Below, one piece after another: positions 33,379 through 57,330 of a stretch of 64,000 nucleotides of DNA (position 1 is the first letter of the stretch; every line of letters begins with the position of its first letter). A program made the translations under genes and the position numbers. Below the pieces are notes generated by a model. It was not told the origin of the DNA. It did no database searches and saw nothing but the letters and a program-made list of their open reading frames with translations. Origin of the DNA: Phlebopus portentosus (Eukaryota > Basidiomycota > Agaricomycetes > Boletales > Boletinellaceae); assembly GCA_037892935.1 (NCBI GenBank), contig JAYXKI010000019.1, positions 434,001 through 498,000 of the forward strand, given 5' to 3'.

Positions 33379-34558
33379 ATGCAGTGGACAGTAGGAACTC
33401 TCGAAGGTATTCTGTATCATCTCATCTCGCCGATACTTCTTTGTAAACGCAAAGTTCCTCAGGTGTGTCTTGTTGGTCCTTAGCTCCCGATTCACTCGAC
33501 TCATGCTCATGCAGCCGCAGCTGGTACTAAGTACATCACAGCTGAACGATGAATAAATAGTTCAGTTGGTTGACTCGTCTCCCAGAGTCGACAAGGGCAC
33601 ATATATCTGCGCTTTGGATGGTAAACCTAACATTGGAGATGTGGCAAGAATAGCTTCAGATGTTGTGGTGAAGTGTTGTCCTTCAAGTGGAGCTTTTGAG
33701 TGTCTCTCGGCTGAACTTGTACGAAAATATACGGCGATACCAGTTCCGATGCATGAAAGGGTTTTTCGCGGCAGATACGACACCTACTTGGTCCAGCAGT
33801 ATATACCTGGCCGTGTTCTGTTAGACATATGGTCCCAGCTCGGCTTGTGGATGCGTCTACGGATCGCCATTACCCTCCGCTTTTACATCCATGAACAGCG
33901 CTGCATATCTTCTCGAGCAGGCCCACCTCCTTTTCCCGGACCACCTTCGAACAATGGTACCCCGCAGCTATGCACTGGCCGACTGTTCGCCGGAGAGGGT
34001 TCTGGAGAGGGTTCTGGTCCCTTCCACTCATACCGTGAGATGTCGAGATGGTACCAGAACAGGCTTCTTGTGATGCAACGATTCCGGAAAGAAGGCTTGG
34101 ATTGTGCACCGTTCGACGACAACGCCCCTCTCGTATTCACACATATGGATCTCCATCCGCGAAATATGATTTTGGGCGACGATGGGCAATTATGGAGTAT
34201 TGACTGGACCGACGCAGGATGGTATCCATCATGGTTCGAGGCTGCAAGCATGATACGCTTCGCAAAGCATCGTTCGGACATACCGTCCTCCTGGACCTCA
34301 TGGATACCGTTTATAGCGGGATCTTGTGAAAAGCCGGGTCAGCTGCCCTTCATACGAGCTATTTCTTATTCTCTCGACGTTTTGCAAGCTAATATCATGA
34401 ACTTAGTATGTAGTATCATTTGGGATTGGCTGCACGCTGATACGTTTTCTGAGAAGATATATTCCGCTAAATCGAGCTCGCGTGAAACGTCGACACTCAG
34501 AATACTTTTATTGAGACATCTGATCCATTTCCAAAGGTGTATACGATGTGTTACATAG
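33379..34558 (+). pseudogene. K1: APH-fold kinase-like gene with an early nonsense codon
   Basis: Exon 1 33379-33462 (MQWTVGTLEGILYHLISPIL), 52-nt intron, exon 2 33515-34558. Codon 14 of exon 2 (33554-33556) is TAA where every other copy has GAA or GTA; the rest is open for ~330 codons and keeps THMDLHPRNMILGDDGQLW. The motif SIDW replaces IIDW. No alternative acceptor restores the frame, and the long downstream frame has no early ATG. It probably makes no full protein unless translation reinitiates. The 3' two-thirds is almost identical to K3, including an in-frame tandem duplication giving GEGSGEGSG; the 5' third differs from K3. Confidence 0.7.
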
Positions 34559-34630
34559 AAGAGAAAAAGATGATAACTTGTGACTTCTTTGATCAGTGTT
34601 CACTCGATCTTGTCCCGTATCTGGAAGGAA

Positions 34631-35361
34631 CTAGTGGTAGAAGTTACCCTTGATGCGCGGGAGCGGGAACTTCGAACCAAGCTTCGCCTCTTCCTGGATC
34701 TTAGTCTGTGAAATCTTGTGGGGCACTATGGGCAACAAGTTGGTCTTCTGCCAGCTTTTCAAGGACACAGCCATACCAATGGCGACATCCCTGACCTTCG
34801 TCGTTAAATCTACGCGCAATCAGCAAACACTCCTGGAGACATCGGTTGATTATACCTACATGTACTGGTCCATATTGTGCTTGTTGAATATTATGTTCAA
34901 GAGCGCGCCCACTGTCTTACCGGCGGCCAGTAGTTTCTCGAATGGCTCTGGTCCGAATTTCTTGGAGGACGCTACTTCTTGTACTCTATGAGTGCGACGC
35001 CACGCATAGGGCAGCTCATGTCTGTATAGGACGGCTGAATGTCAATACGGACGGACTCCGTCGTTTCCTGACGGAAGGAGAGTCGGAAGTGGAAGAACTT
35101 CCCATCGCTGTTCCGTTCCGACAATAACCAACTTGTCGACGGGCAGCGAGAAAGTATTCAGCTCGGACTTCACGCTGCTGATAGATCTCCAGACATCTTG
35201 CGGCGAAAACCGCTCCGATCTGATCCCCCGTGAATGTAATCCACTTCCCGTCAGCGCTGCCAGACAACATAAATCGTAGGCCTCTTGCGAAGGGTGTACC
35301 TGCAAACGAAACTGTCAACGACGACGTACATGGACTTGAGAAAGTCAACTTACGAGGACAT
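34631..35361 (-). pseudogene. D1: decayed copy of the D gene family
   Basis: Homologous to D3 along its length but broken: after the 8-nt first exon and a normal GTAAGT intron (35353-35300), exon 2 has ~90 bp of extra sequence with stops, a two-base loss, and a TAG near the exon end; exon 3 has TAA in place of a Tyr codon. GCRHW is still readable, but the following Cys is Tyr. It faces K1 tail to tail. Confidence 0.75.
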
Positions 35362-36912
35362 CTTGCAAAAATCGAAGTTGGTGAGGGAAAACAGCAACAC
35401 AAATGAGCGAGGTTGTACAGGATGCATCGGCTTCGAGGGGTATTTATAGGCATCCGAGGCCACAAACACTGACTCAAAAGTTCTGGCCAACATAAAATTC
35501 GCGAGCGGGCCGTCAATGGAAAGGAAGTGCCATTAATCTGGAGATCTTGAACTCCTAAGTTCTGTGGATGCTAAGCAGTGGCAGGGCCCTTCTGGAGCAC
35601 TCAGAGACAAGTAAAATAGTGGAGGCCACCAAAAGTCATCAGTATCGAGTATACAGGTAGTAAGTCTCAGCGTAAATCCGGCATTGCACCTGGTAGATGC
35701 CACCATGAGTAGACCGAATAACAATGACTAATAAAAGAGGCCTCGTGCCTGTGACTCTGTTGTGGTGGAATTACGTGGAGATATGAACTGGCCGAGAATA
35801 ATATAGGTACAAGTCAGATATCCCGATTGAGCGTACACCGACAGGCCACAATCCAGTCAACTTTCGGCTAGTGTCTATCGGCTCCTATCTCTTACCGACG
35901 ACATCTTCACGAGTTTTTACACCGCTTTTATCGTCGGATTAGTCTGAGAAAGGCTAGAATAGGTTGAACAAAAGGCCACAAAACTTCTTCTGGCTCGGAC
36001 AGTGACACGATCCAGACAAAGAGTGAATTTACTGGCAGGGAAGTCGGGTAGGTACATCCCTAGAATTTGATGTCCCTGATCAGGCTGTCGACAAGTCATG
36101 ACTTCATGAGACAAGGGCAACCATATTCGACTACATTCGATGCACAGCCTGAGGTCGGCGACAAAGGATTAACCGCCAGTAGTAGTACTACATTATAGTA
36201 CAGCATAAGAGTGAAGTAACCAGAAATAAATGTTTTATCCAGTAAAGCTCATAGTGTTTCTATTGATTTCCACCATTATTCCTCGCGCATGGAATACAAA
36301 CCGATCAAAGCCGATTCTAAACCCTCGTCAGACGAATTACTTTTCTTTTTCATATGTCGCCTAAATTTGGCAACGTTCACCGGATTTAGTATAGCCTTCC
36401 AGAGATATCTAGCAAGAATCAGTAAGTTGGCGGATACCTACCTTCTCCCGTACTCCTGTCTATCTCATGTTCGCAAAAAATGTTTTAGACCTGCTTGCGG
36501 TAATTCAAGTCGACCAAAATATTATACAAATGTAGATGGGAAATATAATGGAACGGGGACGACGTAAAACTCAACTCTAGATAGTCAGTCATGTAGGCAT
36601 CAGAGCTGGGAGCCAGGACAACTTTCCTGATAATAGTAATGTCTCCACCGATGCATATATTCGTAGGGATTTGTCGACAAGTTGCGCGATAACACTGATA
36701 CGCAATACCGTGAGAGACTGTTATGTTACCGATGAGTATAAGAACCTCTGTGGGCGGAGTAGCCAGAATGGGAGCTTTGATCGTCAAATAACGTAAGCAG
36801 CCAAGAACTTGAAACAGTTCAGGACAGACTGTTCAGGACAGACGATCCGATCGCCAGCAAGCCGAATGCGAGCAGCCTCTTGCCTGCGTTTTGTCGTGTC
36901 TGTATGGAACAT
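35362..36912. repeat. Array spacer between D1 and K2
   Basis: Divergent-promoter spacer. From about 35940 it is nearly identical to 42600-43575 (spacer D3-K4), part of a ~6.7 kb segmental duplication. The D-proximal part is related to the other array spacers. No gene recognised; frames of 60-100 codons here are not conserved between copies. Confidence 0.6.
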
Positions 36913-37930
36913 ATGGGTCGAAAACTCCTGCAGCGTGCATCGGAAGGTCTTGTTGGCCTTTTCTACCGTCTCATCTCGCCGATGCTTCTCTGTAAATCCA
37001 AACCTGCTCAGGTAGGTCTTTCGTGTCCCTAGATCGAGGCTAAGTTGACTTACACTCACGCAGAAGCAACTCATCTTGAGCATATCGCTGCTGAATGATG
37101 AAGTAATAGAAAAGTTGGCTGACTCATCCCAAAAAATCGATAGGGGTACATATTACGACTTTGAGACTGGTGAACTCAATTGCGGCAAGGTTTCAAAGAT
37201 AGCTCCCGATGTTGTAGTGAAGCGCTCTCCTTCAACGGGTATCCGTGAATGCCTCTCTGCAGGACTCGTTCGGCAATATACAGCTGTACCAGTTCCGATG
37301 CATGAACGGGTTTTCCATGGCTGGATCAGCAACTACCTCGTCCAGGAGTATATACCTGGTCGGGTCTTGTTAGATATATGGTCGCAGCTTGGGTGGTGGA
37401 TGCGTCTACGTGTTGTCGTTACTCTTCGCTTCTACATCCATGAATTACGTTCCATATCCTCTCGTGCAGGCCCACCTCCTTTTCCCGGTCCACCTTCGAA
37501 CGATGGAGCTCCTAAGAAGTGTACTGGCCGATTGTTTACAGATGACGGTGCTGGTCCCTTTCATTCATACAGTGAAATGTCGCGATGGTACCAAAACCAA
37601 CTTCTTTTGGTACAACGATGGCGGAAGGAGGGACTGGATAGTGCACCATTTGATGACAGCGGCTCCCTCGTATTCACACACATGGATCTTCATCCGCGCA
37701 ATATAATTCTAGGAGACGACGGTCAATTATGGATCGTTGACTGGACGCATGCCGGGTGGTATCCATCCTGGTTCGAGTCTGCAAGCATGACGCGCTTCGC
37801 TGAGCCTCGTTCGGACATACCGTCCTCCTGGACCTCATGGATACCATTCATAGCGGGCTCCTGTGAGAAGCCAGGTCAACTTCCATTTATCCGAGCCATT
37901 TCCTGCGCCCTCGAGATTTTATTATCATAG
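36913..37930 (+). CDS. K2: APH-fold kinase-like protein
   Basis: Exons 36913-37011 and 37064-37930, 321 aa. The first exon encodes MGRKLLQRASEGLVGLFYRL then ISPMLLCKSKPAQ; an ATG nine bases upstream is equally possible. The phosphotransferase domain has a candidate ATP lysine in APDVVVKRSP, an acidic helix (ECLSAGLVRQYT), the catalytic loop THMDLHPRNIILGDDGQLW and the metal-binding IVDW. The architecture is that of aminoglycoside-phosphotransferase-like kinases (PF01636 group), which in fungi are mostly small-molecule or uncharacterised kinases. Ends EILLS, earlier than K3, K6 or K7. Nearly identical to K4. Convergent with D2, 246 bp apart. Confidence 0.85.
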
Positions 37931-38176
37931 TCTATAGACCCGGTGAGTATTATCACTTGGGGATAGAATGTATACTGATTCCTTTCTTGGGAAGATGTAT
38001 CTCAAGTAGTTGACGTCTCAGAAAGTGGCGATTTTTGACATTCGGTTCATGCATATGATATGTTCACTTCATTTTTGGAGGTATATACGACATACTTCAT
38101 AAAAGAAACAGAATGATGAGTTGTTACCTTTGAACATTTGAGTTCGCATTACGGATCATAGATCTAGAAGAAATCA

Positions 38177-38836
38177 CTAATAGAAAGTGCCCTTGATACG
38201 CGGTATTGGGTAGCTGTACCCAAACCTCGCGTGCTCCTGTGCTTCGCGTTCCGCGAACTGCTGCGGGACGTTACTGTTGACAAGCTGTTCTCGAGTCAGC
38301 ATGTCAAGGACGGTCGCGCACCAATGCCTACAACCCTGACCGGGATCGACCAAGCTAGGTATGCCCAATCAGCGAGATGCGGAAAACAGACAGGCTAGAA
38401 TTACTAACATGTATTGATCCAAATGATACTTAGTAAAGATTACCTCCAGGAATGTGCCCGCTGTCTTTCCAGGGGCCACTGGTACGATGAACGGTTGGGG
38501 TCCATGGGACCAGGAGAAGTCATATGGGTTGTACTCTACCACCGCAATGGCGTACATCGAGATACCCGTGTCTGTCCTGGTCGGTCGCACGTCAATGCGG
38601 ATGGACTCCCTACCACCGCTCGACGTCTGCGGCACGAGTGACAGCCTGAAGTGGAAGGTATTTCCATATGGAGTACCAACGACGGCCAAGTAGCTGATAG
38701 GCATTGACAAGGCACGTGGTGTGTTCCTCAAGGAGTCGCTAATGTGGATGGTATTCCTATAGGGAAGGGCATACCTAGAAATACGACTGTCATCGACAAT
38801 GTACTCATACCTTTGTAAGACTACTTGCGAGGACAT
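38177..38836 (-). CDS. D2: small protein with FHFR / GCRHW motifs (DUF7770-like?)
   Basis: Exons 38836-38829, 38774-38409 and 38354-38177, 183 aa. The first exon is 8 nt and the first intron starts GCAAGT (a GC donor); 54 nt long, it also reads through in frame. Conserved core: MPISYLAVVGTP, TFHFRLSLV, ESIRIDVRP, EYNPYDFS, then in exon 3 DPGQGCRHWCATVLDML and PIPRIKGTFY at the end. The layout recalls fungal DUF7770 proteins, and the His plus GC.HW pair recalls permuted papain-like folds; both are impressions. No signal peptide. TATAAAA at 38934-38928 is its likely promoter. Tail-to-tail with K2. Confidence 0.8.
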
Positions 38837-40100
38837 CTTGCAGAGATAAAAGGTTGGAAATATAAGAAGGCAAGTGTAAGAGAGAGACGAGTGAGTTCGC
38901 AGAGAAAGCAACGGCTTTCCATAGGGGTTTTATAGGCTTTCTGGGCCACAAATACTGACTCAGGATTTCTGGCCAGCATGGAAGATGGAGCGCAGGTTCG
39001 CAAGTGACCTTGTGGAGCACATGTGCAGAGAACATGGAGTCGTCAGTAAGAAGAAAGTGCTATCAGTCTGAAGACCCTGGACTCCAATTTCTAGTCGCAT
39101 TCCTGGAAGAGCCGAGCCCTGGCAGAGCCTTTATGGAGAACAAAGAGATAAATGAGGTAGGAGAGGCCACCGAAGGTCATATTCACCAAGAGAGGTAAAT
39201 AGTCGTTGTTGTGCCTAGCAGGAAACTGAATGGGCATAACTAACACTAGAGGCCCCGTTCCCCTGTGACTCTGATGTGCTGGAACCTAGCAGAGATATGA
39301 GACGGCCACGAATTCTATACACACAAGTCAGATGTCCCAAACAAGCATGCATCGGCAGGCCACAATGGATACATCTTCGACCGGTGCCTATCAGCCCCTG
39401 TCTCTGGCCAGGATCATCTACACGTGTTTTGTGCGGGAATATCATGGGATGAATCCAAGTAAAGTTAGTATTTTGTGAGCGAAAGGCCACAAAATCCCTT
39501 CTGACTCGGCCGGTGCCGCAATGCGGACGACGAGAGAGATGACTCGTAAGGAAATCAGGAAACATCCGATAACTCTGGTCGGGTAGTCGACAGGCTACGT
39601 CTTGATTCAGCCCGGGAAACTACTCTGGGCTAGATTCAGTAACAATAAACAGCCTGGGTTGGCTGAACGGCATGTGAGCAGATGATCCAAATTAATTGCA
39701 ACAATATCATTCATTCCAAGTCTTCCCACCACAGAGCCGAGGTTCATTTCTGTCCGCTTAGAATGAGAATAAGAAATTAAAAATTGAGCCCTTTCGAAAT
39801 CAAGATCAGGATTAAAAGGTAGGAATTAAGCAGGTACGTGTAAGCTTCAGATAGTACGATACGCATCGATTTGATGCCACAAAAAAATCATTACGTAACA
39901 CATTCCTGTTATGGGTACAATCAAGAGGCTGATCCCACGATAGCGTAAGCAATCGACAAGCTCGACTTGAAGACGCCAAGCAACAAATCTGCAAAACAAC
40001 CACTTCACCATTTCGCTACGATCACCATCAAATCGACTGCGTGCTTGTTGCCTCGCCTCCCCTTTTCTGACTCTGTCTCTTTTCGATACATGGGAAAGTC
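38837..40100. repeat. Array spacer between D2 and K3
   Basis: Common spacer: about 38950-39600 is homologous to 49310-49890, 52030-52640, 55160-55770 and 57340-57960. The K3-proximal part is nearly identical to 55440-56296 upstream of K8. It contains a broken version of the ORF seen intact at 52638. No gene called. Confidence 0.6.
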
Positions 40101-41149
40101 ATGGAGTGGGCAGCAGGAGCTCTTGAAGATCTTCTCTACCGCCTCATCTCCCCAATACTTCTCTGTAAATGTAAGCCTCCTCAGGTAGGTCTCGGTGTCC
40201 TCAGCTCGAGAAAACTTCACTCATGCTCGCTCAGAAACAGGTAGGTTTGAGTACATCGCTTTTGAGCGACGAAGAAATTGAGAAGTTAGCCGACTCGTCT
40301 CCAAATGTCGACATGGCCACATATATCGTCTTGGACACTGGACACCCCAATTCTGGCCACGTTGCAAGGATTGCTTCAGACGTGGTAGTAAAGCACTCTT
40401 TTGGAACACCTATGCATGAGCGCCTCTCGGCAGAACTTGTACGAAAATATACGGCGATACCAGTTCCGATGCATGAACGAGTTTTTCGCGGCAGATACGA
40501 CACCTACTTGGTCCAGCAGTATATACCTGGACGTGTTTTGTTGGACGTGTGGTGTCAACTCGGTTGGTGGGGACGCCTACGGGCCATCATCACTCTCCGC
40601 TTTTACATCCATGAACTGCGCTGCATATCTTCTCGAGCAGGCCCACCTCCTTTTCCCGGACCACCTTCGAACAATGGTACTCCGCAGCTATGCACTGGCC
40701 GACTGTTCGCCGGAGAGGGTTCTGGAGAGGGTTCTGGTCCCTTCCACTCATACCGTGAGATGTCGAGATGGTACCAGAACAGGCTTCTTGTGATGCAACG
40801 ATTCCGGAAAGAAGGCTTGGATTGTGCACCGTTCGACGACAACGCCCCTCTCGTATTCACACATATGGATCTCCATCCGCGAAATATGATTTTGGGCGAC
40901 GATGGACAATTATGGATTATTGACTGGACCGACGCAGGATGGTACCCATCATGGTTCGAGGCTACAAGCATGATACGCTTCGCAAAGCATCGTTCGGACA
41001 TACCGTCCTCCTGGACCTCATGGATACCGTTTATAGCGGGATCTTGTGAAAAGCCGGGTCAGCTGCCCTTCATACGAGCTATTTCTTATTCTCTCGACGT
41101 TTTGCAAGCTAATATCATGAACTTGGTATGTAGTATCATTTGGGATTGA
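40101..41149 (+). CDS. K3: APH-fold kinase-like protein
   Basis: Exons 40101-40184 and 40235-41149 (50-nt intron GTAGGT...CGCTCAG), 332 aa. Exon 1 encodes MEWAAGALEDLLYRLISPIL then LCKCKPPQ. The kinase-like core has ASDVVVKHSF, YLVQQYIPGRVLLDVW, THMDLHPRNMILGDDGQLW and IIDWTDAGWYPSWFE. It shares the GEGSGEGSG duplication with K1. Mosaic: 5' third like K8, remainder like K1. A further intron near the end (donor GTATGT after MNL, acceptor AAGATAG) is possible and would replace the last residues. Catalytic residues are intact. Substrate unknown. Confidence 0.85.
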
Positions 41150-41353: not shown

Positions 41354-42009
41354 CTAGTGGTAGAAGTTACTCTTGATGCGCGGGAGCGGGAACTTCGAAC
41401 CAAACTTCGCGTATTCCTGGATTTCATAGTCTGCGAAATCTTGTGGGGCGTTATGGGCAACAAGCTGATCTTCTGCCAGCTTTTCAAGGACACAGGCACA
41501 CCAATGGCGACATCCCTGACCTTCGTCGTTAAATCTACGCGCAATCAGCAAACACTCCTGGAGACATCGGTTGATTATACCTACATATACTGGTCCATAT
41601 TGTGCTTGTTAAAGATAACGTTCAAGAGCGTGCCCACTGTCTTACCGGCGGCCAGTAGTTTCTCGAATGGCTCTGGTCCGAAGTTCTCGGAGAACGGATA
41701 CTCCTTATAATCTATGAGTGCGACGCCACGCATAGGGCAGCTCATGTCTGTATAGGACGGCTGCATGTCGATCCGGACGGACTCGTTCGTCAACTCCCGA
41801 TAGAAGGAGAGTCTGAAGTGGAAGAACTTCCTGTCGCTGTTCTCCGTTCCGACAATAGCCAACTTGTCGACGGGCATCAAGAAAACATCCGGCTTGGACT
41901 TCACATTTCTGGTAACGTAAATTGTAGGCCTGCTGGGAAGGGTGTACCTGCAAACGAAACTGTCAACGACGACGTACATGGACTTGAGAAAGTCAAATTG
42001 CGAGGACAT
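41354..42009 (-). CDS. D3: FHFR / GCRHW protein
   Basis: Exons 42009-42002, 41947-41585 and 41534-41354, 183 aa. Intron 1 would begin GCAATT, a weak GC donor; because it is 54 nt and open, retention would add 18 residues. Core motifs: YTLPSRPTIYV, MPVDKLAIVGTE, FFHFRLSF, ESVRIDMQPSY, IFNDEGQGCRHWCACVLEKL, PLPRIKSNFYH. Invariant His and Cys are kept. TATAAATA at 42087-42080. Faces K3 tail to tail at 204 bp. Confidence 0.78.
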
Positions 42010-43575: not shown

Positions 43576-44593
43576 ATGGGTCGAAAACTCCTGCAGCGTG
43601 CATCGGAAGGTCTTGTTGGCCTTTTCTACCGTCTCATCTCGCCGATGCTTCTCTGTAAATCCAAACCTGCTCAGGTAGGTCTTTCGTGTCCCTAGATCGA
43701 GGCTAAGTTGACTTACACTCACGCAGAAACAACTCATCTTGAGCACATCGCTGCTGAATGATGAAGAGATAGAAAAGTTGGCTGACTCATCCCAAAAAAT
43801 CGATAGGGGTACATATTACGACTTTGAGACTGGTGAACTCAATTGCGGCAAGGTTTCGAAGATAGCTACCGATGTTGTAGTGAAGCGCTCTCCTTCAACG
43901 GGTATCCGTGAATGCCTCTCTGCAGGACTCGTTCGGCAATATACAGCTGTACCAGTTCCGATGCATGAACGGGTTTTCCATGGCTGGATCAGCAATTACC
44001 TCGTCCAGGAGTATATACCTGGTCGGGTCTTGTTAGATATATGGTCGCAGCTTGGGTGGTGGATGCGTCTACGTGTTGTCGCTACTCTTCGCTTCTACAT
44101 CCATGAATTACGTTCCATATCCTCTCGTGCAGGCCCACCTCCTTTTCCCGGTCCACCTTCGAATGATGGAGCTCCTAAGAAGTGTACTGGCCGATTGTTT
44201 ACAGATGACGGCGCTGGTCCCTTTCATTCATACAGTGAAATGTCGCGATGGTACCAAAACCAACTTCTTTTGGTGCAACGATGGCGGAAGGAGGGACTGG
44301 ATAGTGCACCATTTGATGACAGTGGCCCCCTCGTATTCACACACATGGATCTTCATCCGCGTAACATAATTCTAGGAGACGACGGTCAATTATGGATCGT
44401 TGACTGGACGCATGCCGGGTGGTATCCATCCTGGTTCGAGTCTGCAAGCATGACGCGCTTCGCTGAGCCTCGTTCGGACATACCGTCCTCCTGGACGATA
44501 TGGATACCATTCATAGCGGGCTCCTGTGAGAAGCCAGGTCAACTTCCATTCATCCGAACTATCTCCTGCGTCCTAGAGATTTTATTATCATAG
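43576..44593 (+). CDS. K4: APH-fold kinase-like protein
   Basis: Exons 43576-43674 and 43727-44593, 321 aa. Near-identical to K2 (a handful of substitutions, such as a Thr for Pro before DVVVK), reflecting the ~6.7 kb duplication. Catalytic loop THMDLHPRNIILGDDGQLW and IVDWTHAGWYPSWFE are intact. Its D partner has been lost: only a few tens of bases resembling a D 3' end remain near 44838, followed directly by the decayed MYND copy. Confidence 0.85.
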
Positions 44594-44936: not shown

Positions 44937-46221
44937 TTACCAGAGATACGTGGATTGATCAGATATGCGATCAAGACAAATATTCAAATTATGATTTCCG
45001 ATATATTTTGCCCAAAGATAAAATTTCATGCCTTCGTATCCTGTTTTCACAACATTTTCCAAGCGTCTGAAGCATTCAGGATCTTGAGGGAGGAATATTT
45101 GATCAGTGAACAAGCGCTTCCGATCGTAGACCAGCATAGAGTTCCCGCCGATGACAGCAAGCTGTATTTGACGAGGAATGAGTCGTTTCCGTAGCCGGTT
45201 GGTTCGCTCCCCGAGATGCCGTCTACTGTTCATGACATTGTGATTGAACAAACTTTGAATGTTATTCGTCGTGTATTCCATCCGTATCCACGTTCCCGTA
45301 TCGAGAACAAGACAAGATGACTTGTGATGCGGCCAGTCTGAGCGTTGACAATCTATAATCATGATAGTTAGTAGTACAGTACGACTTGTGAAACGGAAAG
45401 GTGACGAGCCTTTTCCGCAGAAAGGAACGGACTGGCATTGAGAGCAAAGCACCGGCTTCTCGAAGTATTATCGCAGATGATACATCCAATGTCCTTGGAA
45501 AGTGACCCGATATCGATCTGACTACGCGGATTAGAGAAGGCGGGTAGTATGGTGTCGTTCCGGTCCACCTCGATCTGCCTTCACTTGAACGGGCTGCGTT
45601 GACCTCAAGGAGTTTCTGGAACATCGCATGTCCTCCAGGAGAGTGAGCATCTTGATACCTTCCTTATCGTCATCTCTGGTGCGTCCAAGATTGTATTCAG
45701 CGGCAATGAATGGAGTATCATCATCCATCTTGTACACGCCTGTGACCTTTCACGTTTGAGGCAATATGTCAAATTTCGGGAAATATTAGGATAAGGGTTA
45801 TTTTCCATACCTTTAGCTTTATTAGTCTATCCTTCTTACTATCCTCTGAAGCGAAGACGGACTCCATTCCAAGCTCATACATCATCCCTATGCTCCCGGA
45901 AAGCATGATTCGTAGTTCGTTGAACGAACCAATATTCTCTCCCCCGACCATTTCTTGCAAGTTGTACGAGATCATTGCTTCTTTCAGGGTCCCCCCAGAA
46001 TCCGCGATCCAAGGTTCCAAGCTCCCAACGTTAGGTCTCCTATGAGGGAGGAGATCTGCATGTCGCTGGGAACGGTCGAGTGCCTTCGTGAGGCGCTCTT
46101 GTAGTCCATCAACGTGTAGTTTCGTTGACACAGGTGGTTTCACTCCCACAGAGGAGAGGATTTCGAGAAGCCCTTCATGATCGTTAAGGATGGACTCATT
46201 TATACTAGACCTGGAGCACAT
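44937..46221 (-). pseudogene. M2: decayed MYND-protein gene copy
   Basis: Paralog of M1. Exon 1 (46221-45811, 411 nt as in M1) is intact, as is the start of exon 2 (45728, MDDDTPFIAAEYNLG). Then at least three frame changes occur in exon 2 (a base lost near 45640, another change near 45540, another near 45470 within the MYND finger), and the last exon has more around 45190-45240. Pieces of the finger (DIGCIIC, LCSQCQSVPFCGKG, CQRSDWPHHKSSC) are readable in different frames. The number of lesions, against clean kinase copies on either side, argues for true decay. It occupies the place of D4. Confidence 0.8.
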
Positions 46222-47314
46222 CTTCAGCAGTAGTACATAGACAAGCTAGGCGTGAGAGCGAGTCAGATACCGAAATGCAGTATTTTCCTTTAAATATGGT
46301 CTGAGTGCTCCACATGTAGACATTAATGTTGGCTCACACCACACAATATCTCGGCACTGAATCGACAATGACCTACGCTATATAAACGTGGCAGACCTAG
46401 GCTTCTTTAATGAACGGCATCCTGGACCACCTTTGTTGGATTCGGAAATATGATTTCAGTCAACTGGATAACATTGATATTGTCCAGACGCCGTTTCCTT
46501 TCCCTTAAGGATATATTCCTTATGAAGTATATCCAGCACGATTAACACAAGAAGCTTCGCGGCCCTATGAATCTGGTGTGGTGGGACTTAGCGGGCATAT
46601 TGGACGACCAAGAACTTGTATACGCACAAGTCAGATGTCTTCAGAAAGCATGCATCGCATCGACAGGCCAGAATGTGACCAAATTTCGACCATTGTCTAT
46701 CGACTCCTATCTCGCACCCAATTTCCTCGTCTATCTTGTCTGGAGTTAACCCAAAATCGTGAGACTGATCCGAGAAAAGTTAGCATGACTTGAGCAGGCC
46801 ACAAAATTCCTTCTGACTCGGACCGTGAAGCGATGCAGACAAAAGGAGAGCTTACACGTAAGGAAATCGGTAAACGTACTTCCGAAGTAGGCCTGTGACA
46901 AATCGACAGCCCGCGACCTGACTCAATAAGGACAACAACACTCAGAGCGCAGCCTGAAATGACCGAATCGCCATGTGTTGACATTACAGCTATTTGCATA
47001 GGTAATAGCACTCTGGACTTTTTTGAATAAAGAGAACTTGTTTAAGAAGCGGAAATTGGAAAATGGACTTCAACATTACCTGAGGTATTGTAGAATAAAT
47101 GATGTAATAGTTGTAGCGTCTTCAGTGACAGACAAAAGTATCGATGTTGATAGTTTTGGGAAACCCGATTACTAAAAATGCGCCAAGCCGTGATTGTCTG
47201 ATTGCGTAAGCAGCCAAGTTTGTATAACTGGTCGTTGCAACTTGAAGTCGTCTAACACGAACAGCGTCCTGCTTTTCTTGTGAAGTTGTTCTCCGATCTA
47301 TATGCTGGAATGTT
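46222..47314. repeat. Array spacer between M2 and K5
   Basis: The first ~220 bp extends the M1/M2 homology. From about 46550 it resembles the common array spacer in diverged form. No gene recognised. Confidence 0.5.
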
Positions 47315-48299
47315 ATGCAGTTGACAGTACACGCTTTCGAAGGTCTTCTCTACCGTCTCATCTACCCAATACTTCTCTGCAAATGCGAACCTCCTCAGGT
47401 GGGTCTTTCGAGTCCCTGGTTCGAGACTAACTTGACTTATGCTCATGCAGCAGGAGCGCATCCTGAGTACGTCCATGATGAGTAATGAAGAAATAGGAAA
47501 GTTAGTTGAATCGTCTCCCTACGTTGATAAGGCAACATATATCACCGAGACTGGCAAACCGAACTTTGGCAACGTTGCAAAGATAGCTCCCGATGTAGTA
47601 GTAAAGTGCACTCCTTTAACGGGATCTCGTGAGTGTCTCTCAGCAGATCTCGTGCGAAAATATACAGCCGTACCAGTTCCGACACACGAGCGAGTTTTTC
47701 GTGGTTGGATCGACAACCACCTGGTCCAGGAGTATATACCGGGTCGTGTTTTGTCAGATGCGTGGTTTCAGCTCGGGTGGTGGGCGCGTCTTCGCGTTGT
47801 CATCACGCTTCGCTTCTACATCCATGAACTACGCAGCATATCGCTTCGCGCAGGCCCTCCTCCCTTCCCCGGCCCACCTTCGAACGATGGAGCTCCTAAG
47901 AAGTGTACTGGTCGACTGTTCACCGACAACGGCTGTGGGCCCTTCCGCTCATACCGTGAGATGTCGACATGGTACCAAGATCGACTTTTTTTAGTGCAGA
48001 AGTACCGGAAGGAGGGCTTGGACAGTGCGACGTTTGATGACAGTGCCCCGCTCGTGTTCACGCATATGGATTTGCATCCACGGAATATAATCTTGGGGGA
48101 CGATGGCCAACTGTGGATTATCGACTGGAACGATGCAGGTTGGTATCCATCCTGGTTTGAGGCTGCAAGTATGATAGGTTTCGCAAAGTCCCGTTCGGAC
48201 ATACCGTCTTCCTGGACAACATGGATACCGTTCATGGCGGGCTCTTGTGAGAGACCAGGCCAACTGCCGTTCATACGAGCTATTGCCTACACTCTCTAG
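47315..48299 (+). CDS. K5: APH-fold kinase-like protein, slightly short
   Basis: Exons 47315-47398 and 47451-48299, 310 aa. First exon MQLTVHAFEGLLYRLIYPIL then LCKCEPPQ. The most diverged copy: SMMSNEEIGKLVESSPYVDK, APDVVVKCTP, IDNHLVQEYIPGRVLSDAW, but the catalytic THMDLHPRNIILGDDGQLW and IIDWNDAGWYPSWFE are intact. It ends AYTL because a TAG stands where other copies have a Glu or Asp codon, removing ~10-15 C-terminal residues outside the catalytic core. Convergent with D5 at 232 bp. Confidence 0.82.
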
Positions 48300-48531: not shown

Positions 48532-49195
48532 CTACTGGTAGAAGGTACCCATGACACGTGGCAGCGGGAATATAGAACCAAACCTTCGGTGCTGCTCAAC
48601 TTCATAATCTGCAAATTCATGCGGAATTCCTACAGGGATGAGCTGCTCTTGAGCCAGTCTTTCAAGGACACTGGCGCACCAGTGCCTGCAACCCTGAACA
48701 GAATCTGTGAAGCTACGCATTTCCAATCAGCAAAGTGCTGAAAAACGGAGTGGTTAATTACTGACATGTATTGATCCAAGCTGTACCTAGTAAATATAAT
48801 CTCTAAGAACGTGCCAGCCGATATGCCTGGAGCTGCTGGTACGAGGAACGGCCTGGGTCCAACGTTTCGGGAGTACGCATACGGGACGTACTTTATAACC
48901 GCAATGCCGTCCATCGGCCTGCTGCCCGTCAAGAACGGACGCATGTCGATCAGAACGGATACCTCGCGGGCACCCGGTAACCGTGATACGAGGTACAGTC
49001 TGAAATGAAAGACTTTTCCAAAGGCATTCGGTGTCCCTACCACGGCCAGATAGGAGATGGGCATCGAGAAGAGAGAAGGATTGAACAGCAAGGTGTCATC
49101 CCAATCAATAGTGCGCCTGTTGGGAAGGTTATGCCTGCAAATAAAACTATCATCGTCAACGTATCAGACTTGAAGCAAAGTACTTGCGAGGACAT
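48532..49195 (-). CDS. D5: FHFR / GCRHW protein, obligate GC-AG first intron
   Basis: Exons 49195-49188, 49134-48766 and 48712-48532, 185 aa. Intron 1 (53 nt) begins GCAAGT and ends TTTGCAG; it contains a stop and is not a multiple of three, so the protein exists only if this GC donor is used. Core: MPISYLAVVGTP, VFHFRLYLV, VLIDMRP, FTDSVQGCRHWCASVLERL, PLPRVMGTFYQ. TATAAAA at 49290-49284 lies ~90 nt upstream of the start, as in the other D genes. Confidence 0.8.
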
Positions 49196-50024: not shown

Positions 50025-51058
50025 ATGCAGTGGGCATCTAAAAGTCTTGAAGGCCTTTTCTACCGTCTCATCTCGCCATTACTTCTCTGTAAATCCAAAC
50101 CTCCTCAGGTAAATTCTTTCGTGTCCCTAGATCGAGACTAAGTTGACTTACACTCACGCAGAAGCAACTCATCTTGAGCACATCGCTGCTGAATGATGAA
50201 GAGATAGAAAAGTTGGCTGACTCATCCCAAAAAATCGATAGGGGTACATATTACGACTTTGAGACTGGTGAACTCAATTGCGGCAAGGTTTCGAAGATAG
50301 CTCCCGATGTTGTAGTGAAGCGCTCTCCTTCAACGGGTATCCGTGAATGCCTCTCTGCAGGACTCGTTCGGCAATATACAGCTGTACCAGTTCCGATGCA
50401 TGAACGGGTTTTCCATGGCTGGATCAGCAACTACCTCGTCCAGGAGTATATACCTGGCCGAGTTTTGTTAGACGTATGGGCTCAGCTCGGGTGGTGGATG
50501 CGTCTACGTGTCGTCGTTACTCTTCGCTTCTACATCCGTGAGCTACGCTGCTTATCTTCTCGTGCTGGCCCACCATCTTTCCCCGGTCCTCCCTCGAACG
50601 ACGGTACCCCACAAAGATGTAATGGTCGACTGTTCACGAAGGATGGTTCTGGCCCCTTTGGCTCATACCGTGAGATGTCGAGATGGTATCAGAATAGGCT
50701 TCTTGTGATGCAGCAATTCCGGAAGGAGGGATTGGACAGTGCGCCTTTCGACGACAATGCCCCTCTCGTATTTACACACATGGATCTTCATCCACGGAAT
50801 ATAATTTTGGGCGACGATGGCCAGCTATGGATTATTGATTGGACGGTCGCAGGGTGGTATCCGTCCTGGTTTGAGGCTGTGAGCATGATAAGCTTTGTAG
50901 AGCATCGTTCGGATATACCTTCGTCCTGGATCGCGTGGATACCGTTTATAGCAGGCTCCTGCGAGAAACCGGGTCAGCTGCCGTTCATACGAGCTATTTC
51001 TTACTCCCTTGAAGTTCTGCTGTCCAATATCATGAATCTGGTGAGTATTTTAGATTGA
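50025..51058 (+). CDS. K6: APH-fold kinase-like protein, mosaic
   Basis: Exons 50025-50108 and 50162-51058, 326 aa. First exon MQWASKSLEGLFYRLISPLL. The 5' part of exon 2, to about 50455, is essentially the K2/K4 sequence (SSQKIDRGTYYDFETGELNC); after YIPGRVLLD it switches to a distinct version (RCLSSRAGPPSFPGPPSNDG, NGRLFTKDGSGPFGSYREM). The abrupt change suggests gene conversion. Catalytic loop and IIDWTVAGWYPSWFE are intact. A terminal intron (GTGAGT after MNL, acceptor AAGATAG) is possible. Convergent with D6. Confidence 0.84.
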
Positions 51059-51257
51059 TAGTTGATCGCACGCTAATTCATTTTATGAGAAGATAGATTC
51101 TGACTAGTCTACGTCGCCGGAAGCAGCTCTCTACGGCTTATAACGGCCTTATAAAATGCCAGATTTATTTGGAGGGGTGTATACGACATAATACATACAA
51201 GAAAGAGAATCGTAATTTCTCAAATGCTTTGAGTTCACCCGATTGATCATAGAAAAT

Positions 51258-51920
51258 TTAAAGGTAGAAGGTACCCCTAATACGGGGCATTGGGAACCTA
51301 TCGCCAAATATTGTATGCTGTACAACTTCGTAGTTCGCGAACCACTGGGGACCTGAGCATCGACAACCTGCCTTTGAGCCAGCATATCGAGGACACTGGC
51401 GCACCAGTGCCTGCAACCCTGGCCAGGGTAGACGAAACTACATCCAATCAGCACGAAAAGTTAAATAAACCGGCTGAAGTAACTGACATGTACTGGTCCA
51501 TGTGGGATTGATTGAAGATCATCTCCAGGAGCATGGCGGCTGTGATGCCAGGGGCCACTGGCACGAGGAATGGTTCAGGACCAAAACGCTGGGAATACTC
51601 ATACGGATTGTACTCAACCAACGCGATGGCGTGCATTGAAGTGTCCCTGCCTATGTAGGATGGTTGCATGTCGATACGGACGGATTCCTTATTGCCATTC
51701 GGATTCTGCGATACGAGGGACAACCGGAAATGGAAGACGGCACCAAACGCATTCGGAGTGCCCACCACGGCCAAATAGCCGATAGGCATTGACATTGCAT
51801 GCGGGTTGCCCCTCAAGGTGTCGAGGGGAATAATAGTGCGTCTGTTGGGAAGGGCGTACCTACAAATAAAACTGTCATTGACAATCTACTCAGCCCTGGG
51901 TAAACTACTTGCGAGGACAT
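51258..51920 (-). CDS. D6: FHFR / GCRHW protein with a 3' frameshift
   Basis: Exons 51920-51913, 51859-51488 and 51437-51258. Intron 1 (53 nt) uses a GCAAGT donor and must be spliced to keep frame. Core: MPIGYLAVVGTP, VFHFRLSLV, ESVRIDMQPSY, FVYPGQGCRHWCASVLDML. After AQVP the frame is off by one: restoring a base in the C4 run (plus-strand G run 51347-51350) gives the family-typical WFANYEVVQH and MPRIRGTFYL ending at 51258. As written the exons sum to 560 nt; 561 would be in frame. Either a recent lesion or an assembly indel. Confidence 0.7.
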
Positions 51921-53146
51921 CTTGTAAAGATCAAAGGTTGGAGATGTAAGAAAGCAAGCGTAAGAGAGACGAGTGAGTTCGTACAGAAAGCATCGTTTTC
52001 CGAAGAGAATTTATAGACCTCCTAGGCCACAAATACTGACTCGGGATTTCTGGCCGCCACAGAAGATGGAACACAGGTTCGCAAACGATTTTGCGGGGCA
52101 CATGTGCAGAGAACATGAGTCGTCAGTACGAAGAAAGTGCTATCAATCTGAAGATCCTGGACTCCAAAATCTAGTCGCATTCCTGGAAGTGCTGAGCCCT
52201 GGCATAGCCCTTCTGGAGAACAAAGAGACAAATGAGGTAGGAGAGGTTACATTCACCAAGAGAGGTAGAAAGTCGTCGTTGCGCCTAGCAGGAAACTGAT
52301 TGAGCATTACTAACACTAGAGGCTCCGTTCCCCTGTGAGTCTGATGTGGTGGGACTTAGCAGGGATATGAGATGGCCAAGAATTCCATACACACAAGTCA
52401 AATGTCCCAAACAAGCATGCATCGACAGGCCTCAATGCGACTAATCTTCGACCAGTTTCTATCAGCCCCTGTCTCTGGCCAGGATCACCTACACGTGTTT
52501 TGTACGGGGATAATATCATGAGATGAATCCAAGAAAAGTTAGTATATTGTGAACAAAAGGCCACAAAATCCCTTTCGACTCGGTCAATGCCGAAATGCGG
52601 ACAAAGGGAGAGATGACTCCTAAGGAAATCGGTAAACATGCTTCCTGAATCCGATAACCTTGGTCGGATAGTCGACAGGCTACGTCTTAATTTTCAGCCT
52701 GGACAACTACGTTGGGCTGAATTCAATGACAATGAGCAGCCTGAGATGATCCAAATCAATTGCAACAATATCGGTCCAAGTCTTCCCGCCACAGAGCCGA
52801 TGCTCATTTCTGTCCGCTTAGATTGGAAATATGAGATTCAAGTTGAGCCTATTCGAAAGCAAGACCAGGATTATAAAGCAGGAATTAAGCAGGTACGTGT
52901 AAGGGTCAGACAGTACGATGTCTGCCACAATTTGATGCACAAATATCTTATTACGTAACATATTCCTGTTCTAGGTACAGTACAATCGAGAGGAGTCGAT
53001 AGCGTAAGAAACTCGAAGACGCCAAGCCAACCAATCTACTTCACCATTTCGTTACGATCGATCATCATCAAACCGACTGCGTGCAGCGTCTTGTTCCCCC
53101 TGCTTCCCCTTTCTTTTCCGAGTTCTTTTCGATACATCGGATAGTC
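51921..53146. repeat. Array spacer between D6 and K7
   Basis: About 52030-52640 is common spacer. The rest resembles the region upstream of K3 and K8 but keeps an open frame at 52638 (listed separately). Confidence 0.55.
52638..52958 (+). CDS. Possible small gene or relic in the D6-K7 spacer
   Basis: Open frame of 106 codons starting MLPESDNLG. The composition looks coding (QPGQLRWAEFND, LISVRLDWKYEIQVEP). It runs into GTACGTG at 52893, which could be a splice donor after GIKQ, so the last ~20 codons may be intronic. Homologous DNA upstream of K3 and K8 is interrupted by indels. No family recognised; it may be the only surviving frame of a third gene once present in each unit. Confidence 0.3.
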   Translation: MLPESDNLGRIVDRLRLNFQPGQLRWAEFNDNEQPEMIQINCNNIGPSLPATEPMLISVRLDWKYEIQVEPIRKQDQDYKAGIKQVRVRVRQYDVCHNLMHKYLIT

Positions 53147-54172
53147 ATGGAGTGGGCAACAGGAGCCCTTGAAGATCTTCTCTACCGCCTCATCTCCCCA
53201 ATATTTCTATGTAAACCTTCTCAGGTGGGTCTCGGTGTCCTCAGCTCGAGAAAAACTTCACTCATGTTCACTCAGAAACAGGTAGCCTTGAGTACATCGC
53301 TCTTGAGCAACGAAGAAATAGAAAAGCTGGCTGACTCGTCTCCCAATGTCGATAGAGGTACATATATCGTCCTGGACACTGGACACCCTAATTCTGGCCA
53401 TGTTGCAAAGATTGCTTCAGACGTTGTAGTAAAGCACTCTTTCAGAACGCCCGTGCACGAGCGGCTCTCTGCTGAACTCGTGCGGCAATATACAGCTATA
53501 CCTGTTCCGAAACATGGTCGGTGTTTTCGTGGTCAGTACGATACCTACTTGGTCCAGCAGTATATACCCGGTCGTGTTCTGTTAGACGTATGGTCTCAGC
53601 TCGGCTGGTGGATGCGACTACGGGTCATTGTCACTCTTCGCTTCTACATCCATGAACTACGTTCCATATCCTCTCGCGCAGGGCCTCCTCCCTTCCCCGG
53701 TCCTCCCTCGAACTACGGTACCCCACAAAAATGTACTGGCCGGCTATTCACTGCGGACGGTTCTGGTCCTTTCCATTCATACCGCGAGATGTCGAGATGG
53801 TACCAAAATCGACTCCTCGTAATGCAACGAATCCGGAAGGAGGGCTTGGGCAGTGCTCCATTCGATGACAGTTCTCCTCTTGTATTCACACACATGGATC
53901 TTCATCCACGCAATATGGTTTTGGGCGACGATGGACAATTATGGATTGTTGACTGGGCCGACGCGGGATGGTACCCATCTTGGTTTGAGGCAGCAAGCAT
54001 GACGTCCTTCGCGAAGCCTCGCTCGGACATACCGACCTCCTGGACAACCTGGATACCGTTTATGGCTGGCTCCTGTGAGGAGCCAGGTCAACTGCCTTTC
54101 ATACGAGCTATTTCGTACTCTCTCGATGTTTTAAAGGCCAATATTATGAATCTAGTGGGTGTCGTGGTTTGA
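53147..54172 (+). CDS. K7: APH-fold kinase-like protein
   Basis: Exons 53147-53224 and 53276-54172, 324 aa. The frame also reads through the 51-nt intron, so an ORF caller would merge them. First exon MEWATGALEDLLYRLISPIF then LCKPSQ. Candidate ATP lysine at ~79 (VVVK), catalytic HMDLHPRN at 232-239, metal-binding Asp of IVDW at ~252, then ADAGWYPSWFE. A possible last intron (GTGGGT after MNL to AAGATAG) would end the protein with IPTS. Convergent with D7 at 211 bp. Confidence 0.86.
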   Translation: MEWATGALEDLLYRLISPIFLCKPSQVGLGVLSSRKTSLMFTQKQVALSTSLLSNEEIEKLADSSPNVDRGTYIVLDTGHPNSGHVAKIASDVVVKHSFRTPVHERLSAELVRQYTAIPVPKHGRCFRGQYDTYLVQQYIPGRVLLDVWSQLGWWMRLRVIVTLRFYIHELRSISSRAGPPPFPGPPSNYGTPQKCTGRLFTADGSGPFHSYREMSRWYQNRLLVMQRIRKEGLGSAPFDDSSPLVFTHMDLHPRNMVLGDDGQLWIVDWADAGWYPSWFEAASMTSFAKPRSDIPTSWTTWIPFMAGSCEEPGQLPFIRAISYSLDVLKANIMNLVGVVV

Positions 54173-54383
54173 AGATCGACTGCATTCTGACTCATTCTTG
54201 CGAAGATAGATTCCGACTAGTTGATGACCGTATGCGAATTCGAAGAGTTCCTTTTTCTGCCTTGTGGGATATTCATATCTTTTGCTATACTCATATACGA
54301 CGTATGATTTACAAGAGAAGGAGAAGAATGATGAATTGTTTCTGATTCGGCATGTCGTGTTCAGCTACTGAACGCAGAAAAAA

Positions 54384-55045
54384 TCAATGGTAGAAGGTGC
54401 CCATGATACGAGGCATCGGGAACTTCCAGCCAAACCTCCTGTGTTCCTCGATTTCGCGAGTAGCGAATTCTTGTGAGACGTTGGCGTCGATGACGCCGTC
54501 TTCAGCCAGCCTGTCAAGGACACAAGCGCACCAATGACGACAACCCAAACCTGGCTGCACGAAGCTATGTCCAATCAGCGAAACCCCGAAAAGGAACTAG
54601 CTGAAATTACTCACATGTACTTATCTAGCTCGTGTCTATCGAAGATAATATTCAAGAGCATGCCCGCTGTCATTCCCGGTCTCACCGGTTTGACGAATGG
54701 ACGCGGTCCAGAATTCCGGGAGAAGGAATATGGTTTGTATTCTATCTGCGCGAAGCCACGCATTGAGAAGTCCGGCTCCCTGAAATCCGGTTGCATGTCG
54801 ATGCGGACGGACTCAAATTCGGTATTCGACTTTTGTGAAACGAGCGAGAACCGGAAATGGAAGACTCCATGCACATTCTCGGTCCCTACTACGGCTACGT
54901 AGTGAATGGGCATCGAGATGGCTCGTGGATTGGCCATAAAGCTATCGTCAAGCAAAATGGACTGTCTGAGAGGATGGGCGTTTCTACAAATGCATTTGTC
55001 AATGACTACGGACTCGAGCCCGGGGGCATCTACCTACGAGGACAT
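54384..55045 (-). CDS. D7: FHFR / GCRHW protein
   Basis: Exons 55045-55038, 54983-54615 and 54564-54384, 185 aa. Intron 1 starts GTAGGT, an ordinary GT donor, and an in-frame TAG immediately inside means it must be spliced. Core: MPIHYVAVVGTE, VFHFRFSLV, ESVRIDMQPDF, FVQPGLGCRHWCACVLDRL, PMPRIMGTFYH. Invariant His and Cys are kept. TATA (TATAAATT) about 90 nt upstream. Confidence 0.82.
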
Positions 55046-56296
55046 CTTGCAAAAATCAAATGTCGGTGGAGTGAAGGAGCAAGGGAAACAGAGACAGGAA
55101 CGGGCTCGTACAGAAGGCATCGTTTCATAGAGGGAATTTATAGGCTTCCTAGGCCACAAATACTGACTCAGAAACTCTTGTCAACATAGAATATGAATAC
55201 AAGTTCGCAAGTGTCCTCGTAGAGCACATGTGCAGAGTGCATGAGCGCTCGATAGACAAGGTCTTGTCCATCTGAAGATCTTGGGCTCCTAATTCTAGTC
55301 GCATTCCTGAAAGAGCTGAACCACGGCAGAGCCCTTCTGGAGAATAGATAGACGAAAGAGATAGTAAGGTGACCAAAAGTCATATACATCAAGAGCGGCT
55401 GTCGCGGCATCTAGTAGGTAAACTGAACGAGCATGACTATCAGTAGAGGCCTCATTCCCCTGTGACTCTGATGTGCCGGAACTTAGCAGAGATATGAGAC
55501 GGCCACGAATTCTATACACACAAGTCAGATGTCCCAAACAAGCATGCATCGACAGGCCACGATGGAAACATCTTCGACCGGTGCCTATCAGCCCCTGTTT
55601 CTGGCCAGGATCATCGACACGTGTTGTTTGCGGGATGAATCCAAGTAAAGTTAGTATATTGTGAGCGGAAGGCCACAAAATCCCTTCTGACTCGGCCGGT
55701 GCCGCAATGCGGACGACGAGAGAGATGACTCGTAAGGAAATCAGGAAACACGCTTCAGGAATCCGTTAACTCTGGTCAGGTAGTCGACAGGCTATGCCTT
55801 GATTCAGCCCGGGAAACTACTCTGGGCTAGATTCAGTAAGTAACAATATACAGCCTGGGTTGGCTGACCGACATGCAAACAGATGATTCAAATCAACTGC
55901 AACAATATCATTCATTCCAAGTCTTCCCGCCACAGAGCCGAGGTTCATTTCTGTCCGCTTGGAATGAAAATAGGAGATTAAAACTGAGCCTTTTCGAAAT
56001 CAAGATCAGGATTAAAAGGTAGGAATTAAGCAGGTACGTGTAAGCTTCAGATAGTACGATATGCATCAATTTGATGCCACAAATATATCATTATGTACGT
56101 AACACATTCCTGTTATGGGCACAATCAAGAAGCTGATCGCACGATAGCGTAAGCAATCGATAAGCTCGAACTCGAGCGACAAATCTGGAAAACAACCACT
56201 TCACCACTTCGCTACGATCACCATCAAATCGACTGCGTACTTGTTCCCTTGCCTCCCATTTTCTGACACACTCTCTTTTCGGTACATCGGAAAGTC
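55046..56296. repeat. Array spacer between D7 and K8
   Basis: Common spacer plus a segment nearly identical to the K3 upstream region (offset ~16.2 kb). No gene recognised. Confidence 0.6.
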
Positions 56297-57330
56297 ATGG
56301 AGTGGGTAGCAGGAGCTCTTGAAGATCTTCTCTACCGCCTCATCTCCCCAATACTTCTCTGTAAATGTAAGCCTCCTCAGGTAGGTCTCGGTGTCCTCAG
56401 CTCGAGAAAACTTCACTCATGCTCGCTCAGAAACAGGTAGGTTTGAGTACATCGCTTTTGAGCGACGAAGAAATTGAGAAGTTAGCCGACTCGTCTCCAA
56501 ATGTCGACATGGCCACATATATCGTTTTAGACACTGCACACCCCAATCCTGGCCACGTTGCAAGGATTGCTTCAGACGTGGTAGTAAAGCACTCTTTTGG
56601 AACACCTATGCATGAGCGCCTCTCGGCAGAACTTGTACGAAAATATACGGCGATACCAGTTCCGATGCATGAACGAGTTTTTCGCGGCCGATACGACACC
56701 TACTTGGTCCAGCAGTATATACCTGGACGTGTTTTGTTGGACGTGTGGTCTCAACTCGGTTGGTGGAGACGTCTACGGGCTGTCATCACTCTCCGCTTTT
56801 ACATCCATGAACTGCGCTGCATATCTTCTCGAGCAGGCCCACCTCCTTTTCCCGGTCCACCTTCGAACGATGGTACTCCGCAGCTATGCACTGGCCGACT
56901 GTTTACTGAGGATGGCTCTGGACCATTCCACTCATACCGTGAGATGTCGAGATGGTACCAAAATAGGCTTCTCTTCATGCAACGACAGTGGAAGGAGGGC
57001 TTGGATAGTGCATCATTCGATGATAGTGTGCCCCTCGTGTTCACACATATGGATCTGCATCCGCGCAATATAATTTTGGGTGACGATGGCCAACTATGGA
57101 TTGTTGATTGGTCTGACGCAGGATGGTATCCATCCTGGTTTGAGGCTACAAGCATGATAGGTATCGCGAAAGTCCGTCCGGAGATCCTCAACGAAATCGT
57201 ACTCAAGTTTGAGGACATCTACTTACGAGGACATCTTCCAGAAGTCAAACGTTGGTGGAATAAAGGAGCAAGGGAAAGAGAGACGAGCGGGTTCGTACAG
57301 AATGCATCGTTTTCCGGAGGAGTTTTATAG
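56297..57330 (+). CDS. K8: APH-fold kinase-like gene, C-terminus replaced by antisense D sequence
   Basis: Exons 56297-56380 and 56431-57330, 327 codons. The N-terminal ~265 residues are a normal family member closely matching K3 at the 5' end, with THMDLHPRNIILGDDGQLW and IVDWSDAGWYPSWFEATSM intact. At about 57175 it leaves the family: the usual RSDIPSSW..WIPFIAGSCEKP tail is absent, and the frame continues through the reverse strand of a D-gene 5' end (GHLPEVKRWWNKGARERET) to a stop at 57330. A single deletion joining K8 to D8 explains this. The last conserved helices are missing, so activity is doubtful. Confidence 0.75.
57176..57234 (-). pseudogene. D8 remnant: first exon and part of intron 1
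   Basis: ATGTCCTC followed by a GTAAGT donor, as in D1, then ~40 nt before the deletion junction with K8. A TATAAAA sits at 57329-57323 in the usual place. The rest of D8 is gone. Confidence 0.65.

What the first reader, a model, noticed from the sequence alone, without database searches (positions are those of the whole stretch)
33379..57330. Eight-unit tandem array of convergent kinase-like (K) and GCRHW-protein (D) gene pairs
Seen: eight plus-strand APH-fold genes and, tail to tail with each, a minus-strand D gene or its remnant, in ~2-4 kb units with homologous spacers. K catalytic motifs (HMDLHPRN, DW) are kept in all eight, even K1 and K8, and D proteins keep one His and one Cys throughout. 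Inference: paired retention suggests the two products work together (kinase and substrate, modifier and antidote, or a detoxification pair). A mix of intact, broken and hybrid copies is typical of conflict-driven or dosage-selected loci. I know no described fungal system pairing these families.
Basis: partly seen in the sequence, partly recalled or inferred. Interest (0 to 1): 0.85.

Follow-up and report, generated by a model that had tools for sequence, protein, structure and literature searches.

The report
Tandem kinase plus thiol-enzyme gene pairs
A wood-decay mushroom carries two arrays of repeated tail-to-tail gene pairs, each joining a small-molecule-type kinase to a protein of unknown function that is predicted here to be a cysteine enzyme; relatives of the pair lie side by side in sister species, but joint function is not shown.

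Summary
The array is real: eight K genes (APH family, PF01636) on + face D genes (DUF7770, PF24968) on -. Correction: unit 4 has a MYND-finger gene instead of D. The host is Sanghuangporus sanghuang or very close. New here: (1) A second, inverted array on the same contig, 54 kb beyond the first, holds five more K-D units; searches found no close K or D elsewhere in the genome. (2) D genes are best modelled with an 8-nt first exon and a GC-AG or GT-AG intron (no RNA evidence), so D5 and D7 are intact. (3) D keeps a His (strand), a Tyr and a Cys (helix start); its model's top matches are papain-like thiol enzymes (CLN5; then 2A and a Bacillus amidase, tied with unrelated rows; DUF4105), all weak. 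(4) dN/dS is 0.08-0.44; units 1 and 5 have consecutively tagged relatives in sister species. (5) K has an N-terminal hydrophobic helix ending in Cys, 11 of 11 copies examined.

Best reading: a co-inherited kinase plus thiol acyl/amide enzyme module diversifying by birth and death. Against obligate pairing: K4 has no D, D1, D6 and Db are broken, DUF7770 on C7 lacks K, one His is lost (Dc), K-D congruence is weak.

The parts
33379..34558 (+). K1 (exons 33379-33462, 33515-34558); APH fold; broken by TAA at 33554-33556; orthologues in S. weigelae and S. baumii have no such stop in their models
34637..35361 (-). D1, DUF7770, frameshifted
36928..37930 (+). K2 (exons 36928-37011, 37064-37930); first codon of this exon is Leu, start codon not resolved
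38177..38836 (-). D2 intact: exons 38829-38836, 38409-38774, 38177-38354; GC-AG first intron
40101..41149 (+). K3 (exons 40101-40184, 40235-41149)
41354..42009 (-). D3 intact: exons 42002-42009, 41585-41947, 41354-41534; first donor reads GCAATT, but retention of that intron is in frame
43591..44593 (+). K4 (exons 43591-43674, 43727-44593), recent copy of K2 (dS 0.08); start codon not resolved
44937..46245 (-). MYND-finger gene in the place of D4 (copy of 31213-32502); frames only, not modelled
47315..48299 (+). K5 (exons 47315-47398, 47451-48299); same short C-terminus as its S. weigelae orthologue
48532..49195 (-). D5 intact: exons 49188-49195, 48766-49134, 48532-48712
50025..51058 (+). K6 (exons 50025-50108, 50162-51058); exon 2 query 100% identical to ACEPAF_2161 of S. 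sanghuang by BLASTP
51149..51920 (-). D6: exons 51913-51920, 51488-51859, then a last exon with a frameshift
53147..54172 (+). K7 (exons 53147-53224, 53276-54172)
54384..55045 (-). D7 intact: exons 55038-55045 (GT donor), 54615-54983, 54384-54564; its N-terminus departs from the YTLPNR of the others
56297..57330 (+). K8 (exons 56297-56380, 56431-57330); K-D hybrid, C-terminus read from antisense D sequence
57190..57234 (-). D8, 5' remnant only (ATGTCCTC|GTAAGT); lower border approximate

Best explanation
Each unit is a two-enzyme module. K is a catalytically competent APH-type kinase, probably acting on a small molecule rather than on protein, held at a membrane by an N-terminal hydrophobic helix ending in a conserved, possibly S-acylated Cys. 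D (DUF7770) is a cysteine enzyme with a papain-like, probably circularly permuted (NlpC/P60, LRAT/CLN5-like) fold that makes or breaks an acyl, thioester or amide bond. I infer that the two act in turn on related compounds, most simply to inactivate xenobiotics or competitors' metabolites met in wood, and that tandem duplication, mutation and loss give a panel of units of differing specificity. Shown: array, second array, pairing in sister species (by locus tag only), low dN/dS, conservation of the putative catalytic residues. Predicted: splicing of D, fold and active site of D, membrane anchoring of K. Inferred only: joint action, substrate, detoxification.
Confidence: 0.35

Rival explanations
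1. The pairing is a by-product: a K and a D were once neighbours by chance, and tandem duplication copied the block; the products have unrelated jobs and are retained separately. (This rival concerns the link only; it can be true together with the enzyme readings of K and D, so the odds do not sum to one.)
For: Whole-block copies in self-BLAST; the K2/K4 block ends about 16 bp inside D2, so K4 has another neighbour and yet an open frame; one-sided decay in both directions; DUF7770 and remote K relatives occur alone elsewhere; weak congruence.
Against: Pairs have stayed adjacent through divergence with dS often near or above 1, across two arrays and, by locus tag, in S. weigelae and S. baumii; no close member of either subfamily was found at another locus of this genome.
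Confidence: 0.4
2. Selfish or conflict module: one gene of the pair is a poison or killer element and the other its antidote, with copy-number turnover driven by arms races.
For: Birth and death, hybrids, a copy-number difference between species (3 tag numbers between D1472 and K1468 in S. weigelae against six genes between D1 and K5 here) and larger protein divergence of D between units (dN 0.28-0.47, Dc/Dd apart) than of K (0.04-0.22, K2/K4 apart).
Against: Both genes have low dN/dS; units exist with K and no D and with D and only a K remnant; detoxification families turn over in the same way.
Confidence: 0.08
3. D acts directly on K: it adds or removes the acyl group on the conserved Cys of K's N-terminal helix and so sets where K works.
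For: Conserved P-x-LLC-[KR] end of a hydrophobic helix in K; D's best VIA row is CLN5, called a cysteine-based S-depalmitoylase in a reference title (that paper is not held).
Confidence: 0.08
4. D is not an enzyme; the conserved His, Tyr and Cys hold a structural or metal site.
Against: Order His-(D/N)-Tyr-Cys and Cys at a helix start fit permuted NlpC/P60 enzymes; the top rows of two structure libraries point to papain-like folds.
Confidence: 0.2

Closest known systems
APH / PF01636 small-molecule kinases (APH(2''), APH(4), FN3K; in mushrooms the psilocybin kinase PsiK, whose APH kinship I recall and did not test)
   Same: Fold, HxDxxxxN and DW catalytic residues; PsiK shows a mushroom kinase of a small molecule (PMC11808438, start of abstract in the listing).
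   Different: N-terminal hydrophobic helix with P-x-LLC motif, tandem copies, D neighbour; 9-17% identity to the solved structures listed.
DUF7770 (PF24968)
   Same: D is a member above the cut-off.
   Different: No function or fold on record that I found; 0 papers of the held library contain the name.
[quoted passage not shown] cereus 3kw0, LRAT; with CLN5 and picornavirus 2A (placing of these two recalled)
   Same: Predicted fold, order and place of His, polar residue, Tyr, Cys.
   Different: No sequence match to PF04970; weak structural scores; the GCRHW motif and PSYTDMSCPMRG loop are D's own.
Tandem toxin-antidote or drive loci of fungi (recalled)
   Same: Copy turnover, hybrids, adjacency.
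   Different: No evidence of toxicity; two genes with enzyme-like conservation; units with one partner lost.

Membership tests
APH kinases (PF01636) | Score above the Pfam cut-off | tested here: met
   K1, K6, K7, K8 (the four given); 8 of 8 over cut-off
APH kinases (PF01636) | Catalytic HxDxxxxN and DW/DF residues | tested here: met
   8 of 8 in the window; invariant in 36 of 36
APH kinases (PF01636) | Phosphorylation of a small molecule | not testable with these tools
   -
DUF7770 (PF24968) | Score above the Pfam cut-off | tested here: met
   main-exon frames of D2, D3, D6, D7 (4 of 5 given; D5's had no match); last exon of D5 and others; 14 of 18 relatives
Permuted NlpC/P60 papain-like superfamily | His on a strand before a Cys at the start of a helix, plus polar residue and Tyr | tested here: met
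   Dc lacks the His
Permuted NlpC/P60 papain-like superfamily | Fold match clearly above background | tested here: inconclusive
LRAT family (PF04970) | Pfam match | tested here: not met
   no PF04970 match among 18 relatives of D nor in this genome (control rang in 2 of 14)
Toxin-antidote or drive locus | Killing without the antidote, transmission bias | not testable with these tools
   -
Toxin-antidote or drive locus | No unit keeps an intact poison beside a lost antidote | tested here: inconclusive
   both one-sided losses occur, but other units could supply the antidote

The most novel reading that the evidence does not exclude
K-D units are a lipid-linked regulatory pair: D, an LRAT/CLN5-like thiol acyl enzyme, sets the S-acylation of the conserved Cys at the end of K's N-terminal helix (or of K's lipid-like substrate), a fungal kinase-acyl-switch module present in many specificities in one genome and the first job for DUF7770.
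Probability: 0.07. Interest if true: 0.75.

Novelty: new variant of a known kind. Interest (0 to 1): 0.45.

Why it matters
APH-type kinases and families such as DUF7770 are widespread in mushrooms and, to my knowledge, mostly without a known job. A paired, duplicating module gives a handle on both: if K and D act together, one substrate explains two families. The fold call for DUF7770 is directly testable with two point mutants, and the proposed 8-nt first exon with a GC-AG intron suggests that public gene models of this family are wrong at the N-terminus. If the pairing is only inherited neighbourhood, the locus is still a clear case of how convergent neighbours are carried along and split by tandem duplication.

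Tried and rejected
Rejected: a D gene or remnant in unit 4 (three frames read). Rejected: D5, D6, Dc, Dd as N-terminally frameshifted pseudogenes, my first view; the GC-AG intron puts them in frame. Tried without result: PDB sequence search with the D profile (six glycoside hydrolase chains at E 0.02-0.07, taken as chance); Pfam relatives of D up to E 5 (three unrelated weak rows besides DUF7770); PF20174 (DUF6540) in the genome (nothing rang anywhere, so no conclusion); K in viral contigs (24 pattern matches, 0 relatives); D in prokaryote contigs (73 pattern matches, 0 relatives); D in plasmids (none). K-D distance congruence fell short of significance. The longest-frame script chose introns of 41-52 nt for K; for K1, K3, K6, K7 and K8 I set the exon borders in 'parts' by eye at the CAG|GT...CAG borders printed instead. 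Print: DUF7770, 0 papers; basidiomycete APH expansion, 3 papers and 2 papers; tandem pairs, 650 papers held three or more of the terms and 10 were listed; Sanghuangporus genomes, 63 papers, 15 listed; I saw listings only, and none of the listed titles or abstract starts speaks of this pairing.
Full report
What is there. The window lies at C19:434001-498000 of a 38.4-Mb, 23-contig genome. The second exon of K6 is 100% identical to ACEPAF_2161 of Sanghuangporus sanghuang by BLASTP (99.7% over the stretch aligned); K2 and K7 are 98.6 and 99.6% identical to ACEPAF proteins, though Bb is closest (99.0%) to a protein filed under S. baumii A7U60, so I call the host S. sanghuang or very close. Eight K genes lie on + between 33379 and 57330, spaced 2710-3724 bp start to start, 8 of 8 over the PF01636 cut-off. 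Each has a short first exon coding for a hydrophobic helix, an intron of about 50 nt and a main exon.

D genes. D is DUF7770 (PF24968). Reading the copies showed what looked like frameshifts at the N-terminus of D5, D6, Dc and Dd and a stop at codon 4 of D7. These disappear with an 8-nt first exon (ATGTCCTC in the window; ATGTCCTT, ATGACCAC or a near variant in the second array) and an intron of 53-55 nt. Of 11 copies with this start, seven have the donor GCAAGT, D1, D7 and D8 have GT donors, and D3 has GCAATT. The resulting starts, MSSYALPNRRTI, MTTYTLPDRPTI and so on, match the starts of Laccaria, Heliocybe and Armillaria relatives; D7's does not (MSSNAHPLRQ). This is a sequence model without RNA evidence, and in D2, D3 and Da retention of the intron is also in frame. 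A second intron lies before the GCRHW exon. By this model D2, D3, D5, D7 in the window and Da, Dc, Dd in the second array have complete frames; D6 has a frameshift in its last exon; D1 and Db are broken; D8 and De are remnants. Unit 4 has no D. There the 2.9-kb K2-K4 duplication (93%) ends about 16 bp inside the end of D2, and beyond it lies a copy of the MYND-finger gene from 31213-32502.

Second array. K and D also lie at C19:545.6-582.9 kb in the opposite orientation: three K with open frames (Ba, Bb, Bc), one broken K (Bd), one K remnant, three D with complete frames, one broken and one remnant. Between Ba and Bb lie about 26 kb with long repeats and retroelement-like reading frames (the retroelement reading is by eye, no family search was made). 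K of the two arrays are about 70% identical. At the thresholds used, no other locus of the genome gave a close K (three remote matches at 28-42%) or a D of this subfamily. The two DUF7770 genes at C7:1155-1157 kb are remote, have no K in the 12 kb fetched, and the only APH match on C7 lies 0.88 Mb away. The 12 D genes or remnants that I listed lie 0-251 bp from a K or K remnant.

Sister species. Locus tags in the protein searches give neighbours (that tags run along the contig is a recalled convention; strand is not shown). Of seven D proteins with ACEPA tags, four have a K with the next or previous number: S. baumii 3341-3342, S. weigelae 1464-1465, 1467-1468, 1472-1473; for 9238, 3321 and 2184 the nearest listed K is 5-6 numbers away, but only one protein per 90% cluster is listed. 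K5 and D5 are closest to 1468 (91.9%) and 1467 (89.9%); K1 is closest to 1473 (94.2%) and baumii 3342 (94.0%), which stand beside D1/D3-type 1472 and 3341. So unit 5, and unit 1 by its K, appear to predate these species. K1464 is K8-like and D1465 is D6-like, so that pair is not one window unit. In S. vaninii the listed K 9233 and 4074 lie on contigs of different length, so the two arrays are not on one contig there.

Selection and turnover. Nei-Gojobori dN/dS lies between 0.08 and 0.33 for 55 K pairs and between 0.18 and 0.44 for 28 D pairs; many dS exceed 1 and are near saturation, K1 and K8 are in the K set and D6's shifted tail is in the D set. Over seven units D differs at 44-54% of sites where K differs at 13-31%, Dc/Dd (24%) apart. 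K and D distances correlate at r 0.44, reached by 371 of 5040 permutations, so joint descent is seen in the block copies but not proved by this test.

K. Model pLDDT 90.9, pTM 0.88. Structural neighbours are aminoglycoside kinases, with FN3K and a 25-hydroxysteroid kinase at slightly lower Z. This says kinase of the small-molecule type, not which molecule. The first exon ends in a P-x-LLC-[KR] motif, kept in 11 of 11 genomic copies examined (Bd not examined) and in 17 of 36 relatives.

How it most likely works. A kinase at a membrane and a thiol acyl/amide enzyme, copied together, with copies free to diverge or die, is what a set of two-step modifying enzymes for many related compounds would look like; a detoxification role in a wood-decay fungus is the simplest setting. 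The by-product reading has about equal weight and I cannot exclude it. My searches of the held library found nothing on this pairing (listings only, the last capped at 10 of 650).

Noticed in passing
window 31213-32502 and 44937-46245, also C19:498091-498402 and C17:886698-887171: A small family of MYND-finger genes (four matches), one copy of which sits in K-D unit 4; a weak further match lies just right of the window.
   Followed up: partly
C19:548809-574212 (outside the window): Nested repeats, among them a 459-bp pair at 99.3%, and retroelement-like frames (by eye) split the second K-D array.
   Followed up: partly
C7:1155054-1156792: Two tandem remote DUF7770 genes with GHGCFYW and GHGCLHW instead of GCRHW and no K nearby.
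   Followed up: partly
C5:361017, 376849, 391488: Three APH matches of another kind, about 15-16 kb apart, perhaps another array.
   Followed up: no
window 58998-62742: Right flank: a frame that by eye looks like a JmjC-type gene (no family search made).
   Followed up: no
P0006, P0007 (S. weigelae) and P0004 (S. sanghuang): Public models of D relatives probably start too late (P0006, P0007) or read through the first intron (P0004), because the 8-nt exon and GC-AG intron are missed; S. weigelae DNA was not seen.
   Followed up: partly
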